DNA of 64,000 nucleotides, taken from the NCBI RefSeq assembly GCF_000004825.1, contig NW_008805077.1:372001-436000 (forward strand), written 5' to 3'. The notes beneath the pieces were generated by a model. That model was not told the DNA's origin and did not search any database. It saw nothing but the letters and a program-made list of their open reading frames with translations. Origin of the DNA: Heterostelium album PN500 (lineage: Eukaryota; Evosea; Eumycetozoa; Acytosteliales; Acytosteliaceae). Both the position numbers and the translations under genes were made by a program. Shown here one piece after another: positions 1-20,675 of the stretch; the first letter of the stretch is position 1; every line of letters starts with the position of its first letter.

Positions 1-1369
1 TTTTACCAATTAGTGGTTGCATTCCTTTTGTCGGACCTGTTCTTCAAGGTGTATTCTCTCTCTTCTGGAAGAGAGCTGCCGAATCCAATGTTATTACCAA
101 AGAAAAACTCAAAGAAGAGTTGGACAAACTAAGAAAGGAAATGATGGAAGCTGTTGCCGGAAAGATCAAAGATAGTGAAATCAAGCAATGGACTGAGATC
201 TGTGAAGCTTTCTTGAAAGGATTGAAGAAATCATGTAAAGTTCTTGGTACTCATATCAATGCTCTTAAACATCAATTTGCCGAAAAAAAATGTGCCGATG
301 AACAAGTTCAAGAAGCCGTCCGTATTGATTTGGCTTTGATCAGTGATAAAGCATTCTCACTACATGAATTCTGTGATTCCCCGGCATACCTTAAGTATAC
401 ACTTGGATACTATATTCAATCGCTTCAAATCTACACTGCTATCTTAACACTTCAAGATGTATGTACTAACTTTAATATAAAATATATGTTTTATTGAGAC
501 AATATCTAATAATTTAATTTATATTAACATAGGCATTCTGGTATCAATTGGGAATTAAACCAATTTTTGTTACTGGTAGACGAGCTACTGATACAATTGA
601 TGCCTTGCCATCATTTGCAGAGACTATGCATGAAGAAATAATGCCAGCACTCAAAAATATTGCCCGAGGTCTTACCGAAAATGTTCGTGAAGGAGCACAG
701 GCCAAAGGAGTCGATTTAACTACTCTCCATCTACTTTTAAAGAGTGATCGTTACCTTTATCCAGTGCCATTAGTTTTGGCACCCGTTGAAATACCACAAG
801 TAGCCAAGTGTCTTCGTGAGGTACAGGGTCCAATCTGTCCAGAATGCAAGGTACCAGAACGCGATGGAACCTTTATCTTTAGAATTGATTGTATAAATTT
901 CAGACCGGAAACATCCGCTGAAGATATCCGTGGTTATCGTAATATGTCTCATGTTGAAGAACCGATCACTGGTTGCAAAGGTACGATGTCAGGTATTCCC
1001 GCTGCTCTCACAGTTGTCCTTCCAAAAAAGAGAACCGTTCAAATTCGTTTCGTTGGTGAATATGATCAGACTTTTACTGATCTCCCAATTCAATGGACCA
1101 CAAATGAAGAGGCATACTATACTGCGATGATGCCATTCGGAGAAAATTATCGAAGAAACAACAAAACTATTCCTGCAATCAAGGAGGAAATGGGTATCTC
1201 ACAGGTTCCAGGAATGAGCTTGATGATAAATACAAATTCATTAAAGAGTGGAATGACCTACACTGAAAAGATGACTGATATCGAGAGACTTACCTTTGTC
1301 ACTGATAGATTTGATGATATGAAACGTCATGCAAAGATTTTGTTTATTGAATTAATCATTCAAGATTAA
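1..1369 (+). CDS. Cry delta-endotoxin N-domain-like protein, copy 1 (5' end outside window)
   Basis: Partial gene: the first 13 bases are the tail of intron 1, exon 2 is 14-458, intron 2 is 459-532, and exon 3 is 533-1369 with a stop. Exon 1 lies off the left edge. The protein is nearly identical to the complete copy at 7002-8652, with about 14 amino-acid differences over roughly 427 residues, and intron 2 and the 3' flank are also conserved, so the duplication is recent. Exon 2 encodes a Gly/Val-rich hydrophobic segment followed by Phe-Trp and long amphipathic helices. I recognise this layout from the helical pore-forming N-domain of Bacillus Cry proteins; this is an inference by eye. Exon 3 encodes a C-terminal half I cannot assign. 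Expression and toxicity cannot be judged. Confidence 0.7.
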
Positions 1370-7001: not shown

Positions 7002-8652
7002 ATGTCTGCTTCCTCAGTCCCTGGTACTGAAACCTACAACTCCACAACTCTTAGAGATCTTGCTGGAGGTGCTGGTGATAGAATCCTTGCCAAGCTAGAT
7101 GAAAATCCAATGAATATCATTCCAATCAATTTGATATGTGCTGCACTCGATATTAAAGATCCATTCGAGGTTATTGCTCATTTTGAACCTGACAAAGAGG
7201 ATGTTGGTATTATGGTGAATGCATGCATGTAAGTTAATTAAAAAACAATAATATTGTTTATAATCCCGATTAATAAAAATTATTGTTACTATATAGTGGT
7301 GTGATTCCTGTCGTTGGACCTATTCTTCAAGGTGTATTCTCTCTCTTCTGGAAGAGAGCTGCTGAATCCAATGTTATTACCAAAGAAAAACTCAAAGAAG
7401 AGTTGGACAAACTAAGAAAGGAAATGATGGAAGCTGTTGCCGGAAAGATCAAAGATAGTGAAATCAAGCAATGGACTGAGATCTGTGAAGCTTTCTTGAA
7501 AGGATTGAAGAAATCTTGTAAAGTTCTTGGTACTCATATCAATGCTCTTAAACATCAATTTGCCGAAAAAAAATGTGCCGATGAACAAGTTCAAGAAGCC
7601 GTCCGTATTGATTTGGCTTTGATCAGTGATAAAGCATTCTCACTTCATGAATTCTGTGATTCCCCGGCATACCTTAAGTATACACTTGGATACTATATTC
7701 AATCGCTTCAAATCTACACTGCTGTCTTAACACTACAAGAGGTATGTACTAACTTTAATATAAAATATATGTTTTATTGAGACAATATCTAATAATTTAA
7801 TTTATATTAATATAGGCATTCTGGTATCAATTGGGAATTAAACCAATTTTTGTTACTGGTAGACGAGCTACTGATACAATTGATGCCTTGCCATCATTTG
7901 CAGAGACTATGCATGAAGAAATAATGCCAGCACTCAAAAATATTGCCCGAGGTCTTACCGAAAATGTTCGTGAAGGAGCACAGGCCAAAGGAGTCGATTT
8001 AACTACTCTCCATCTACTTTTAAAGAGTGATCGTTACCTTTATCCAGTGCCATTAGTTTTGGCACCCGTTGAAATTCCACAAGTAGCCAAGAGTCTTCGT
8101 GAGGTACAGGGTCCAATCTGTCCAGAATGCAAGGTACCAGAACGCGATGGAACCTTTATCTTTAGAATTGATTGTATAAATTTCAGACCGGAAACATCCG
8201 CTGAAGATATCCGTGGTTATCGTAATATGTCTCATGTTGAAGAACCGATCACTGGTTGCAAAGGTACGATGTCAGGTATTCCCGCTGCTCTCACAGTTGT
8301 CCTTCCAAAAAAGAGAACCGTTCAAATTCGTTTCGTTGGTGAATATGATCAGACTTTTACTGATCTCCCAATTCAATGGAACACAAATGAAGAGGCATCC
8401 TATACTGCGATGATGCCATTCAGAGAAAATTATCGAAGAAACAACAAAACTATTCCTGCAATCAAGGAGGAAATGGGTATCTCACAGGTTCCAGGAATGA
8501 GCTTGATGATAGATACCGATTCATTTAAGAGTGGAATGACCTACACTGAAAAGATGACTGATATTGAGAGAGTAACCTTTGTCACTGATCCATTTGATGA
8601 TATGAAACGTCATGCAAAGATTTTGTTTATTGAATTAATCATTCAAGATTAA
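7002..8652 (+). CDS. Cry delta-endotoxin N-domain-like protein, copy 2 (complete)
   Basis: Three exons: 7002-7228, 7297-7741 and 7816-8652. Phases 2 and 0 agree, giving 502 residues. There is no signal peptide: the start MSASSVPGTETYNS is polar. Residues about 50-75 are mixed, and the exon 1/2 junction builds a hydrophobic Gly/Val-rich segment followed by FSLFW and then Lys/Glu-rich amphipathic helices. In Cry toxins the first helices of domain I have this look, and these helices insert into membranes. The C-terminal half contains two CxxC-like Cys (PICPEC) and a probably beta-rich end, but I cannot match it to Cry domains II/III. Bacterial-like genes with eukaryotic introns would imply an old transfer. 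Alternatives are a dictyostelid-specific helical protein or a lysin family. Function is not established. Confidence 0.75.
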
Positions 8653-13256: not shown

Positions 13257-14238
13257 ATGAGCAGAGAAGAGAGGTTGATGGAAGCAATAAATGAAATTCA
13301 AAACGATACAGGTTTTACTCAAAAGGAGCTCTCTCAAAAGTATGGAGTTTCTGAAAGTGAGCTATCCAAGAAAAAAAATAACCTCTCCTTTAAGCCAAGA
13401 GGTAGATATCTCACCGAAGCAGAAGAATTAGAGATGATAAAGATGGTAGAAGAATCAAACACCACGTTCTCCAGATTCCTAAACGAGTAAAATGGGAACA
13501 TATGCAAATTCAAATTATGGTGTCATTATTGCTAATGAGTCAGGATATGTAAGTTGGCAACTTTTTATAACTTGATCCAAAGTTGTCTATTGCTATTATT
13601 AATATATCAATATTGATACATTGTATTATTATATATTATAGGTAACGCAAGAGATAAAGAAAGAATATGTCGAATGGCTTCTAGGACAATTTAAGAAAAC
13701 AGATAAAAAGCTGCTTTTAGTAGACAATCACATATCCAATTATTTCTTTGACGAAAAAAAACTTTGTGATGAGAATAATCTTATCATAATGACGTTCCCA
13801 TCAAACCTGACTCACATTCTCCAGCCTTTGGATTTAGTCCTATTTTCGTCATTCTCTCAACACCTATCGAATTTGCTCAGAGATGGGTTAAAGGACAATC
13901 CAAAGTTTAAAGTGAACGATAAACACTACCAAATGCTGGCTTATCATGCTTGGTCATCATCATTCAACTCATCCAATATAAGAATGTCTTGGATTAAGTC
14001 TGGTTTGTTCAATTGGATGGCACATGAATACTGCGACCCAATATTTCTTAAAAAGCCGAAAAATTCTATCTCAAAGGAAATCGCTATAGCCGGGAACAAA
14101 GAGATTGTTCCGGCAAATGCTCAAGCCATGACCCAAAAAGAACGGGCTATAGTAATGAGAGATAAAAAGCGCAAGGGTGCCATAATAACTTCCCAAGATA
14201 CACAGTATGTTCAACTTTTTTTTAAATCACCTCATTAA
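13257..14238 (+). mobile_element. Decayed pogo/Tigger-like DNA transposon (internally deleted transposase)
   Basis: The 77-codon frame 13257-13490 has a helix-turn-helix (GFTQKELSQKYGVSESELSKK) followed by the KKMVEE-like second DNA-binding part. From 13492 a second frame begins (MGTYANSNYGVIIANESGY), reaches a likely intron (gtaagt near 13539, acceptor ..ttatag at 13641) and continues to 14238. That part reads ESGYVTQEIKKEYVEWLL, then KKLLLVDNHISNYF with the second catalytic Asp, then FPSNLTHILQPLDLVLF, the hallmark of pogo-type DDE transposases. The segment with the first catalytic Asp is absent, so it is a non-autonomous relic. I see no terminal inverted repeats. Confidence 0.75.
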
Positions 14239-14252
14239 CCCTATTAATTGAA

Positions 14253-15180
14253 TCAAATTTTGACAGGGATATTATCAAAATAACCTATGAATGCTGAGTA
14301 ATACAATGAATCTTTGTCAGGCGAGCTTGAATTATAAGTTGGTTGTTCAGTTCCATCCAAAATCAAAACGTAAGGTATCTTGGGAGTCAAGAACAAATAA
14401 CCTGCTTCCTGTTGTCTTCTTTCAGGAGTCATCATAGATATCTCAGGAGAGAATAAATGATAAAGAAATTCTTGAATTTTCTTTCTATATCTATGGCCAG
14501 TAGATGGAGATATTCCAAAAATTGATGATAATAGAATCATATTAGGATAATGTCTAAAATGAAGAAATACTAAAAGAAGAGCATCTTCAGCAGGTAAAAC
14601 ATTCTGCTGCAGATGTACTTTTTCATATGACTCTAAAATAGAACAATAAACATGATATTCTATTCCAACTAATTCTTGAAATAAAGGCAATCTCTCAATT
14701 ACTGAACAATAAAATGATGAATTTCTTATAAATTATATTTTAATATATATAATTTATACATTACCCACTTTGTTTTCTTTTATAAGAACTTTTCTTAGCT
14801 TGTTTAGCAGCTGGTTTAGCAACTGTCTTTGAAGCAGCATTTTTCTTGGTGGCGGCAGATGGGGCAGGAGGGGGTGTGCTCTGAGTTTCTTCATCTTCAC
14901 CATCTTCTTCTTCTTCTTCTTCATCTTCATCTTCTCCATCAGCTGTCAATGAACGCGATCTAGACTCTGTATTTGTTCCTTTGGCTGACTTCTTTCCGGT
15001 GACATAATGTAATATAATATATCTAAGGCAATGATCTATATTACAGAAGTGTAACTTTTTCAAATGACCATCAACCTTTTCTTTTATATATATTCTTTTA
15101 CTTGGATCTCCATCTATCTGAGTTGCACATCCCACATAATTGGTCTTACCAATTATTCTTGAAATACCATCACAATTCAT
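14253..15180 (-). mobile_element. Harbinger/IS5-like transposase fragment, N-terminal half
   Basis: The frame 14690-14253 reads like the helix-turn-helix plus start of a DDE_Tnp_4 domain: FGISPSTGHRYRKKIQEFL, later PYVLILDGTEQPTYNSS with the first catalytic Asp, then DKDSLYYSAF. It stops where the catalytic core should continue. Upstream, 15180-14761 (start MNCDGISRIIGKTNYVGCAT) is an acidic/Lys-rich 139-residue frame with CNIDHC, probably the DNA-binding N-terminus of the same protein. I could not find a fully consistent splice between the two. The broken catalytic domain and the opposite-strand C-terminal piece at 15302-15471 indicate a rearranged dead element. Confidence 0.65.
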
Positions 15181-17632: not shown

Positions 17633-20600
17633 TTACCATAGAGCTTTATCATATTTGGAAAGTGAATCGAAATAGTTTGAACGTTCTTTGGCATTTGCAA
17701 AACCTTTCGGTGCAGTTTTCTTTGCTGGCACTGGAGGTGGTAGTTGTGGTTGACGTTGACGTTGTTGTACTGGCTCATCAAAGTCTTTGTTGGATTTTGA
17801 TCGCTTCCATGGTGTGTCGTTATCAGTACTATCTAAATTGATGTTTGTTTCTTTTATGATTCTCTTCTTTAGTAGTGAAGCTGGAGTTTCTGGTGATTGA
17901 CTTTGTCTGGTATGTCTATTGATCGGTGTTTTAATTGATGTTTTAGTTGATTGAGATTTGACTGGTGTTTGTGAGATTTGATTGAAAACATCGATCTCAT
18001 CAAATATATCTTGATTTAATTGTAAACTTGCTGGTTTATCTTCAACAAAACTAGTATCTGTATTTTGAGCTAAAACTTTCGATTCTTTCTCTTCCTCTTC
18101 TTCATTTTCTTTATCATTTTCAACTTCATAATAATCTCCCCCTCCACCACCTGATTCCTGTTGGGAATTGATTGATTCATGGCTTGAGCTCGAACTACTA
18201 CTAGATTGTGAACCTGATTGAGATTCGGAATCTGATTCCGACTCTGATTCTCGATTAGACTTTGATCGAGATTTTAATTCTACATCTGACGACTCTGATT
18301 CAGACTCTGAACTATCACTAGAACCAGAGACAGATATTGATTCATTGTCAGAGTCAGAACCTGATTCATTGTCAGCGTCAGAAGCGGATACATCAGAGTC
18401 TTTAACTCCATCTGATTGCTCTGACTCTCCAGACTTGTCTTTTTGAATTTCGCTAACCTCTTCATTATCGCTCACTGTCGGGAAATCACCAAACGATTCA
18501 AAATCACTATGATCTTGTGCTTCTTGTGACGGTTGTACAGCTTCATCCTCTGTCAAATCGTCATCTCTTTCTTGGTCATTCTGATCTTTGTTCTCTTCAT
18601 CTAATTTCTGATCCTGTATTATTGCTTCTTCACTATTATTATTATTATTATTATCATTATCACTATCTATATCCATTCCATTATTTCTATCTTCCTGATC
18701 CTCTTGATCCTCTTCCTGATCCATCTGATCTTCTTTACGTTCTTCTTCACTATGTTCATGCTCTTGTTCTTCTTCTTGACGCTCTTCTTCCTGTTGCTCT
18801 TCCTCTAGATGTTCTTCTCCTTCTCCTTCTTCATTATCAATGTGTTGGTCATCATGTTCTGGTACACCAATATATCTGTCCGGTACCCATGGATCTTTAA
18901 AATAACAATTAATTAATATTAAACTTTAAATTGAAAATTTGAATAATAATAATATTCATACCATTTTCTTTTAAATACTGTTCAGTTTCATCTGATATAA
19001 TATATTCATCGATGTCAAGTTGTAGAGAATCTGCATTGGTATTACTTCTTTTGAAATATTTTAAAACGTAATTCGATGGATATGATGTAGCAAAGAAACA
19101 ACTTGGATTAACTCTAAATAAATAGTAATTAATTAATGATTAATTAGTTTTAGGAAAACAAAAAACAATTTATAGTATTATTATTATTATTATTATTATT
19201 TATTTATTTATCTATAACCTAATTTACATACCTTGTAAGCAATGATAATATTTTATTATGTTTATTGGCGGGTCTTAAGCTATTATAGTTTTCAACAGAT
19301 ACTAAATGACCGATATACTCTGCATCATCGATATAGATATTAAACTCTGAGAATGTTTCGTTGGGGAATAGAATGAACTTTTTCAGCTTTAGAATACCAC
19401 CTATCAGATGATCAGGTACGAATGTCTGCAATCCAAACATAATATCGTGAATCAGCTTCGGTGAGATGATCGCACGTGTAAAATCAGTTCCATCCGAAAC
19501 AACGAAATTAACACCCTGTGGTACATTCGAGTGTATTTTAATATCTGATTGATCTGGTTGTTTTAACTATATAGTAATAATATATATTTAAAATAAATGT
19601 ATAAATTAATATTTTACAGATTATTATAATTTAAAATAAATAACGCTACTCTTGTTATTATTTGTATTAATGGATCTTCAGGTGATTCCTCATTTAATAT
19701 ACTATCGACAATCCATTTTTTTAAATTGGTTGACTTTGGTTGTTCTATCGGAATTTTAAATGGTATTTGCTTATTGTCGAATGACCTGTCATGTGTATTT
19801 TTGTGTTGTTGTTGTTGTTGTTGTTGACTAGAAGTATCTATATTGGTTGATTTTGATTCCTCTTCCTCGTTATTATCTCTATCATCATCACCTGTACCGA
19901 ATTCAAAATCATCTTTAAGTTTCTTTTCTTTATTTTCTTCTTTTTGTTGTTGTTCTTCTTCTGGTTGTTGCTGTTTTTGTTGCTCTTTTTGTTGTTCTTC
20001 TTCTTCTTTTTGTTTTTGCTGTTGTTCAACTTGTGATTGCGATTGTTGTGTAAAGACTGATTGTGAATTACTAGCACTTCTATTGATATCTCTTATCTGA
20101 CCACTGTTCTGAGTAGAAATTACTGTCTCTGTACTACTACTACTTAACTCTATGAATCTACTCAGTAATGTATTACTATTATTGTTATTATCTTGACTTT
20201 GACTTTGGATTTGTGATTGCGATTGCGATACTTGTTGTGATACCTGTTGTGATACCTGTGACGCTTGTGATGGTTGTGTAACAGTAGTATCGGAATGAAC
20301 GATAGGTGGCATTTGAGTTGATTGTGATTTACTATTGATTAAACTTTGATATTGAAAGTATTTCCTTTGTTGTTGTTCGTATTGTTGTTGTGTAACTTGA
20401 GAGTAGAGCGGTTGTTGACTTGACAGTTCAATGGTTTGCGAACCAAAACTTTCTGGTTTTTCATAGAAGTCATTGACCTCTATCTTATCATCTACTTCAG
20501 TGAATATATCTGTATTGGTTTGGGGTGGTTCGTTACTACTTTTAATAGTGTTATTACTACTTATGAACTGAGTCTCATCTTCATCACCCGAGAAGAAGTC

Positions 20601-20675
20601 ATCGTCCATCACATCGATATCAGATGATTTCTCTATACTAACATCTAACTTATCTTCTTCTTCTTCTTCTGACAT
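17633..20675 (-). CDS. Possible shelterin TPP1/ACD-like OB-fold protein
   Basis: Four exons, 20675-19650, 19566-19232, 19113-18962 and 18894-17633, join in frame to 924 residues. Residues 1-320 are acidic and Gln/Ser-rich. Residues about 320-500 form the candidate OB fold: LKKWIVDSILNEESPEDPLI, then across the junction to GVNFVVSDGTDFTRAIISP, GGILKLKKFILFP and EFNIYIDDAEYIG. The order W-I-x-x-x-I-L, L-x-V-S-D-G-T and L-K-K/L-x-x matches the OB fold of human TPP1 (ACD), where this domain recruits telomerase. Residues 505-924 begin DPWVPDRYIGVPEHDD and continue as a very acidic Ser/Glu/Asp region with a basic tail (NYFDSLSKYDKALW). The assignment rests on motif similarity only. Another OB-fold nuclear protein is possible. 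Confidence 0.6.

What the first reader, a model, noticed from the sequence alone, without database searches (positions are those of the whole stretch)
17633..20675. Candidate TPP1/ACD shelterin homologue in a dictyostelid
The exon junction places the motifs W-I..IL, VSDGT and LKKF in the order of the TPP1 OB fold, in a protein with long acidic and Gln-rich extensions. Telomere protection is poorly known in this group, so a homologue would be informative.
Basis: inference. Interest (0 to 1): 0.75.

Follow-up and report, generated by a model that had tools for sequence, protein, structure and literature searches.

The report
Likely amoeba telomere protein TPP1
A gene of a social amoeba encodes a protein that looks like TPP1, the partner that links the chromosome-end protein POT1 to telomerase in animals; if confirmed it would be a missing telomere-cap part in this group, but the sequence evidence alone is not conclusive.

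Summary
Window 20675-17633 (-) is a four-exon gene for 924 aa. Both in-frame splices at intron 1 (of 12 GT-AG pairs tested) join LKKWIVDSIL to VSDGT. TPP1 is the best single explanation but is not proven. Human TPP1 OB chains are the only PDB sequence matches at E up to 10 (E 1.4 and 0.55, weak). A profile of human plus 120 retrieved TPP1s gives 14.5 bits, against at most 5.9 for 5,000 shuffles, 5.8 for yeast Est3 and 2.8 for human RPA70N. Against it: Pfam's TPP1 model does not list the protein, Pfam's RPA70N model does (E 0.025-0.17, below cut-off), hhalign gives 18.5% probability, two word-filtered searches of 5.8 billion proteins found no relative, and the human TEL-patch acidic residues are absent. 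The genome supplies the setting: a POT1-like gene with three OB folds, a TERT without a detected TEN domain, (TAAGGG)n at five contig ends, and a separate RPA1 with its own RPA70N-like domain. A 2019 paper found no shelterin homologues in D. discoideum. Most likely this is a diverged TPP1 that binds POT1 and caps telomeres. I put TPP1 at about 0.6 and an RPA70N-type protein of other function at about 0.2.

The parts
17633..20675 (-). whole gene, four exons, 924 aa, TPP1-like candidate
   Evidence: spliced open frame; A+T of introns and exons
19650..20675 (-). exon 1 (aa 1-342): acidic and Q/N/S-rich extension, then the W-I helix and strand 1
   Evidence: helix and strand are inferred
19567..19649 (-). 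intron 1 (83 nt, phase 0), splits the proposed OB domain between strand 1 and strand 2; an alternative in-frame acceptor ends at 19516
   Evidence: 2 of 12 GT-AG pairs in frame; 89% A+T
19232..19566 (-). exon 2 (aa 343-454): strands 2-5 of the proposed OB fold
   Evidence: the ORF alone scores 4.7 bits to the TPP1 profile
18962..19113 (-). exon 3: end of the folded-looking segment; candidate POT1-binding region by position only
   Evidence: function inferred
17633..18894 (-). exon 4: long acidic/Ser-rich tail with a short C-terminal segment SNYFDSLSKYDKALW
19695..19724 (-). LKKWIVDSIL (aa 318-327), matches human TPP1 LRPWIRELIL (human L95, W98, I99, I103, L104)
19650..19673 (-). PLIQIITR (aa 335-342), proposed strand 1; resembles RPA70N (PILQVINI) more than TPP1
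19486..19500 (-). VSDGT (aa 365-369); followed by R373, as in TPP1 VSDGTHSVR
19363..19401 (-). GGILKLKKFILFP (aa 398-410), proposed strand 4 (or, by MAFFT and hhalign, TPP1's VDRF segment)
   Evidence: placement inferred
19309..19353 (-). FSEFNIYIDDAEYIG (aa 414-428), proposed strand 5
   Evidence: placement inferred

Best explanation
The gene encodes a diverged dictyostelid TPP1, of the TPP1/Tpz1/Est3/TEBP-beta kind. One OB fold (about aa 315-430) with an N-terminal W-I helix sits between long acidic and Q-rich arms. I infer that the segment after the OB fold binds the third OB fold of this organism's POT1, so that the pair caps the single-stranded G-rich (TAAGGG)n end. I also infer that the OB fold may touch telomerase, but not through the human acidic TEL patch, which is missing; TERT here shows no detected TEN domain, so any contact would be with another part of TERT. 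Shown: the open gene model, the sequence resemblance, and the presence of POT1-like and TERT genes and of the repeats. Inferred: the splices, the fold, POT1 binding, telomere localisation and any telomerase role.
For: Human TPP1 OB chains (4 distinct sequences) are the only matches at E up to 10 among 177,635 PDB sequences, aligned start to start. The pairwise score is 74 against a shuffle maximum of 47; the 120 retrieved TPP1s score 46-79. The profile of human plus those 120 gives 14.5 bits, against at most 5.9 in 5,000 shuffles, 5.1 in 763 six-frame ORFs, 5.8 for Est3, 2.8 for human RPA70N, 0.5 for this genome's RPA1 N-domain and below 0 for its three POT1 OBs. Segment totals: TPP1 88, human RPA70N 42, own RPA1 23. 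A POT1-like gene is present (PDB E 1.2e-4 for OB1-OB2 and 0.014 for OB3, best hits human POT1; Pfam 4.7e-6 and 1.5e-5, both just under the cut-offs). TERT is present. Telomere repeats lie at the ends of 5 of 39 contigs. RPA1 is a separate gene. A 12-sequence TPP1 profile retrieves no chain named Est3, Tpz1, p50 or TEBP from the PDB copy at E up to 10, so accepted remote members appear invisible to this kind of test; that those chains are in the copy was not checked.
Against: PDB E-values of 1.4 and 0.55 are not significant alone. Pfam TPP1 (PF10341) is not listed even at E 10, while Rep-A_N is (0.17, 0.057, 0.025 as the piece is trimmed); the trimming was mine. hhalign probability is 18.5%. 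No homologue was found in two word-filtered searches of 5.8 billion proteins, although that database holds eukaryotes. TEL-patch E168/E169/E171 align ungapped with G/L/T. Strands 1 and 4 fit RPA70N better, and against shuffles the helix is no better for TPP1 (p 0.006) than for RPA70N (p 0.004). The signal rests largely on the W-I helix plus VSDGT; exon 2 alone scores 4.7 bits. The splice is not confirmed by transcripts and the fold is not shown.
Confidence: 0.6

Rival explanations
1. An RPA70N-type OB protein with a different job (for example a checkpoint or repair adaptor), not a shelterin part. Its OB cleft would bind peptides from repair factors.
For: Pfam Rep-A_N is the only family listed for the domain (E 0.17, 0.057, 0.025, all under the cut-off). 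Strand 1 (PLIQII against PILQVI) and strand 4 score better with RPA70N, and the helix is as unusual against shuffles.
Against: Human RPA70N scores at noise in pairwise alignment (26 against a shuffle mean of 26.4). It is not among the PDB matches although 13 distinct RPA70N sequences are held. This genome's own RPA70N-like domain lies in RPA1 and is not similar (1.0 bit). The two RPA70N sequences compared lack the W and the T..R around SDG. No RPA DNA-binding domain was listed in the 221-aa segment scanned.
Confidence: 0.2
2. Another OB protein of the chromosome-end or repair machinery, for example a CST-type subunit.
For: OB-like pattern, a POT1-bearing genome, and no convincing Stn1 found with the human protein (best E 1.4).
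Against: No CST family is listed by Pfam for the domain; the architecture with one OB and long tails is not CST-like (recalled).
Confidence: 0.1
3. No OB fold; the motif match is chance in a poorly conserved, partly disordered protein.
For: Database-wide E-values near 1; pLDDT 41 for exon 2; no relatives found.
Against: Two independent libraries point to related OB domains over the same residues; the profile score is well above all controls.
Confidence: 0.1

Closest known systems
Human TPP1 (ACD), shelterin
   Same: W-I helix (L95, W98, I99, I103, L104 positions kept), VSDGT...R, order of segments, one OB-like segment with long tails, co-occurrence with POT1 and TERT
   Different: acidic TEL patch absent; 33 instead of 55 residues from VSDGT to LKKF/VDRF if those are equivalent; 314 aa low-complexity N-terminal arm; TIN2-binding and POT1-binding motifs not tested
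S. pombe Tpz1 and yeast Est3
   Same: same kind of OB fold by literature; TEL-patch chemistry differs from human there too (Tpz1 K75, R76, I77, R81: PMC4936895 passages; positively charged HpEst3: PMC7338525 passages)
   Different: no sequence match to S. cerevisiae Est3 (recalled sequence); Tpz1 sequence not at hand
RPA70 N-terminal domain (Pfam Rep-A_N)
   Same: helix, PxIQxI-like strand 1, SDG motif, strand-4 pattern
   Different: no W in the helix and no T and R around SDG in the two sequences compared; RPA1 exists separately
Ciliate TEBP-beta / p50
   Same: TPP1-type OB partners of a POT1/TEBP-alpha protein (recalled); mouse TPP1 itself matches Pfam TEBP_beta only at E 0.11
   Different: no Pfam TEBP_beta match for this protein

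Membership tests
TPP1/ACD | significant sequence membership (Pfam PF10341 over its cut-off) | tested here: not met
   not listed at E up to 10 (HMMER's filters drop most weak matches); mouse TPP1 scores 115 bits
TPP1/ACD | OB fold of TPP1 type | tested here: inconclusive
TPP1/ACD | N-terminal L..WI....L helix and VSDGT...R | tested here: met
   that these are family hallmarks rests on 120 retrieved TPP1s (mammals where named), wider use is recalled
TPP1/ACD | TEL-patch acidic loop (human E168, E169, E171) | tested here: not met
   ungapped alignment from VSDGT puts GLQTF opposite EEKEF; in the hhalign/MAFFT alignments no acidic trio appears there either; residues from PMC10055720 passages. Basic or hydrophobic in Tpz1, so not universal
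TPP1/ACD | POT1 present with a third OB fold | tested here: met
   (Pfam scores just under the cut-offs); by eye this OB3 lacks the resolvase-like insertion of human POT1
TPP1/ACD | binds POT1, localises to telomeres, recruits telomerase | not testable with these tools
   experiment needed
RPA70N (Rep-A_N) | Pfam Rep-A_N over its cut-off of 26.7 bits | tested here: not met
   12.3 to 15 bits
RPA70N (Rep-A_N) | N-terminal domain of an RPA1 with DNA-binding OB domains | tested here: not met
   RPA1 is at C3:503658 to about 505500 with its own N-domain; this protein shows one OB-like segment

The most novel reading that the evidence does not exclude
A true amoebozoan TPP1 that works with a telomerase lacking the TEN domain: the POT1-TPP1 cap would be older than the TEL-patch/TEN recruitment link, which was lost or never existed here.
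Probability: 0.3. Interest if true: 0.7.

Novelty: new member of a known kind. Interest (0 to 1): 0.5.

Why it matters
Telomere-cap proteins change fast, so their age is hard to trace. A 2019 study reported that it could not find D. discoideum homologues of the mammalian shelterin proteins, and proposed Myb proteins and a POT1-like protein as candidates (PMC6759168, passages). A TPP1 in a slime mould with canonical repeats, POT1 and TERT would put the POT1-TPP1 pair in Amoebozoa and give a genetically tractable system. It would also test whether TPP1 first served capping or telomerase recruitment.

Tried and rejected
Pfam families as exon-by-exon genome searches: TPP1 (PF10341), POT1 (PF02765) and Rep-A_N found nothing in the genome, and no control rang either; these say nothing about absence. 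A POT1-like gene was then found with the human protein (E 0.066, confirmed). The C3 hit of the OB query (E 0.094) lies in what looks by eye like an unrelated secreted or surface protein gene and was dropped. No paralogue was found in that search.

Two protein searches for relatives (regions 305-525 and 310-432) gave 393 and 56 candidates, none at E up to 1 and 10 respectively. No other dictyostelid genome could be reached.

Structure: exon 2 alone, pLDDT 41; no fold search was run on it because a low-confidence model gives meaningless matches. A second job with a TPP1 alignment was not run: alignment A1 was poor after the first half, and using TPP1 rows would be circular.

A first segment-by-segment comparison had RPA70N strand 4 out of register by one; it was redone with offsets of up to 3 allowed for all. 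My first claim that only one splice keeps the frame at intron 1 was wrong; one search found two.

Stn1 with the human protein: best E 1.4, not accepted.

Full report
WHAT IS THERE. The minus strand from 20675 to 17633 carries a four-exon gene with a single open frame of 924 aa. At intron 1, 12 GT-AG pairs between the helix and VSDGT were tested and 2 keep the frame open: 19649-19567 (83 nt), used here, and 19649-19516 (134 nt), which would drop 17 aa. The three introns are 88-90% A+T and the exons 63-72%. The protein has a compact, less biased middle (aa 311-520, 39% hydrophobic) between a Q/N/S-rich acidic arm (aa 1-310) and a very acidic tail (aa 521-924).

RESEMBLANCE TO TPP1. phmmer of the middle segment against 177,635 PDB sequences returns only four human TPP1 OB sequences at E up to 10: best E 1.4 for 221 aa and 0.55 for 124 aa, aligned from the W-I helix to just past VSDGT. 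Those values are not significant for a blind search. As a test of one named hypothesis they are strong: the Smith-Waterman score to human TPP1 is 74, against a shuffle mean of 24.8 and a maximum of 47 in 1,000. The 120 retrieved TPP1s (mammals where named) score 46-79, so the match is not a peculiarity of the human sequence; the four weakest, the only ones printed, keep L..WI....L and VSDGT...R. A profile of human plus those 120 gives 14.5 bits. Controls: best of 5,000 shuffles 5.9; best of 763 six-frame ORFs from the window and loci (overlapping loci counted more than once) 5.1; Est3 5.8; human RPA70N 2.8; own RPA1 N-domain 0.5; own POT1 OBs below 0. The exon 2 ORF by itself scores only 4.7 bits, so the claim leans on the splice that brings the W-I helix next to it. 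hhalign with the same profile gives a probability of only 18.5%.

THE RPA70N RIVAL. Pfam lists only Rep-A_N for the domain: E 0.17 for 221 aa, 0.057 for 133 aa, 0.025 for 73 aa, always below the cut-off. The pieces were trimmed by me, so the best value is flattered. Pfam's TPP1 model is not listed. Compared segment by segment, with offsets of up to 3 allowed, TPP1 scores higher in the helix (25 against 10), strands 2-3 (40 against 9) and strand 5 (11 against -3); RPA70N scores higher in strand 1 (16 against 8) and strand 4 (10 against 4; own RPA1 11). Against shuffles the helix is equally unusual for both (p 0.006 and 0.004). Totals are TPP1 88, human RPA70N 42, own RPA1 23. The segments were chosen by hand. 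TPP1 and RPA70N share the plan helix, strand, strand-SDG-strand, so a real TPP1 could touch both. The Rep-A_N model lists neither this genome's own RPA1 N-domain nor the human TPP1 stretch, so its score here is no artefact of a permissive model. I keep this rival at 0.2.

CALIBRATION. A profile of 12 of the 120 TPP1s (A2) retrieves 11 PDB sequences at E up to 10, all TPP1 or constructs holding it; no chain is named Est3, Tpz1, p50 or TEBP, although these are accepted relatives by structure (PMC7338525 passages for Est3; recalled for the others; their presence in the copy was not checked). Mouse TPP1 matches Pfam TEBP_beta only at E 0.11. Sequence methods are therefore weak in this family, and 14.5 bits is high for a distant member.

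SETTING. The genome (32.9 Mb, 39 contigs) has a POT1-like gene at about C4:298700-300650. Its first two OB folds match human POT1 at E 1.2e-4 and Pfam POT1 at 4.7e-6 (26.9 bits, cut-off 29); the third matches human POT1 at E 0.014 and Pfam OB_POT1A at 1.5e-5 (25.2 bits, cut-off 27), with a C-terminal IRYQIFDT like human ICYQIFDT and, by eye, no resolvase-like insertion. The Pfam POT1 model also matches an RPA70-like gene at 2.4e-5, so that model alone does not prove POT1; the PDB hits do more. TERT is at about C9:535646-538506 (RNA-binding domain 1.2e-11, over the cut-off; reverse transcriptase 2.9e-6, just under it). Its frame opens with a low-complexity arm, and Pfam lists no TEN domain in the four pieces scanned; this is weak evidence of absence, because TEN is divergent, the exons are unconfirmed, and I did not check whether Pfam holds a TEN model. 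All 42 overlapping matches to four and a half GGGTAA units lie within about 170 bases of the ends of five contigs (C3, C19, C30, C37, C38), G-rich strand outward, with none for the reversed pattern. PMC6759168 (passages) gives TAAGGG for P. pallidum and TTAGGG for D. fasciculatum, so the window is probably from P. pallidum or a close relative. Of ten contig ends fetched without selection for repeats, one shows them in the outermost bases printed.

HOW IT MOST LIKELY WORKS. Inferred: the OB fold and the segment after it form a POT1-TPP1 pair that caps the (TAAGGG)n overhang. In an ungapped alignment from VSDGT, human EEKEF (168-172) lies opposite GLQTF (aa 387-391), so the acidic trio is absent and F172 kept. 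In the hhalign and MAFFT alignments LKKF falls on TPP1 VDRF instead, and the acidic trio is absent there too. In fission yeast the corresponding residues are basic or hydrophobic (K75, R76, I77, R81; PMC4936895 passages), and HpEst3 is positively charged there (PMC7338525 passages), so loss of the acids does not exclude a telomerase role. With no TEN domain detected in TERT, the contact, if any, would be with another part of TERT.

PRIOR ART. PMC6759168 (passages) says the authors could not find D. discoideum homologues of mammalian shelterin, and names MybAA, MybL and a POT1-like protein as candidates. PMC6592521 on D. discoideum TERT holds none of the words shelterin, POT1 or TPP1. A full-text search for Dictyostelium with shelterin, TPP1 and POT1 gave 6 papers; none has a dictyostelid TPP1 in its title or abstract start, and one (PMC11206666, passages) says that telomerase-interacting partners in protists, D. 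discoideum among those named, are yet to be identified. A search for four or more of TPP1, Tpz1, Est3, TEBP, amoeba and protist gave 6 papers, none on topic by listing. Five other searches were seen as listings of at most 20 papers each and showed no dictyostelid TPP1. The library omits most subscription journals.

VERDICT. An apparently intact gene with a probable but unproven TPP1-type OB domain; a good candidate and worth a structure prediction with orthologues. TPP1 0.6, RPA70N-type other function 0.2, other OB 0.1, none 0.1.

Noticed in passing
G000 contigs C3, C19, C30, C37, C38 (ends): (TAAGGG)n telomere repeats at contig ends (42 of 42 overlapping matches); by eye the C3, C9 and C16 ends printed also carry a GCAACCCGGGGC-type satellite.
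   Followed up: partly
G000:C4:298700-300650 (L008): POT1-like gene with three OB folds and, by eye, no resolvase-like insertion.
   Followed up: partly
G000:C9:535646-538506 (L009): TERT with a low-complexity N-terminus and no TEN domain listed by Pfam.
   Followed up: partly
L012 / L015 (G000:C27 near 1,089,000): A second RPA70-like gene (REPA_OB_2 1.8e-6, POT1 model 2.4e-5); possible telomeric or repair RPA paralogue.
   Followed up: no
G000:C10:210442-210576: Best match to the human TRF telobox Myb (E 2.8e-5), with a second match in the same open frame next to it.
   Followed up: no
window 13642-14732: Two neighbouring transposon ORFs of different kinds: DDE_1 on + and HTH_Tnp_4 on -.
   Followed up: no
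window 533-1369 and 7816-8652: Near-identical duplicated ORFs; the second copy has no Pfam match at E 0.01, the first was not scanned.
   Followed up: no
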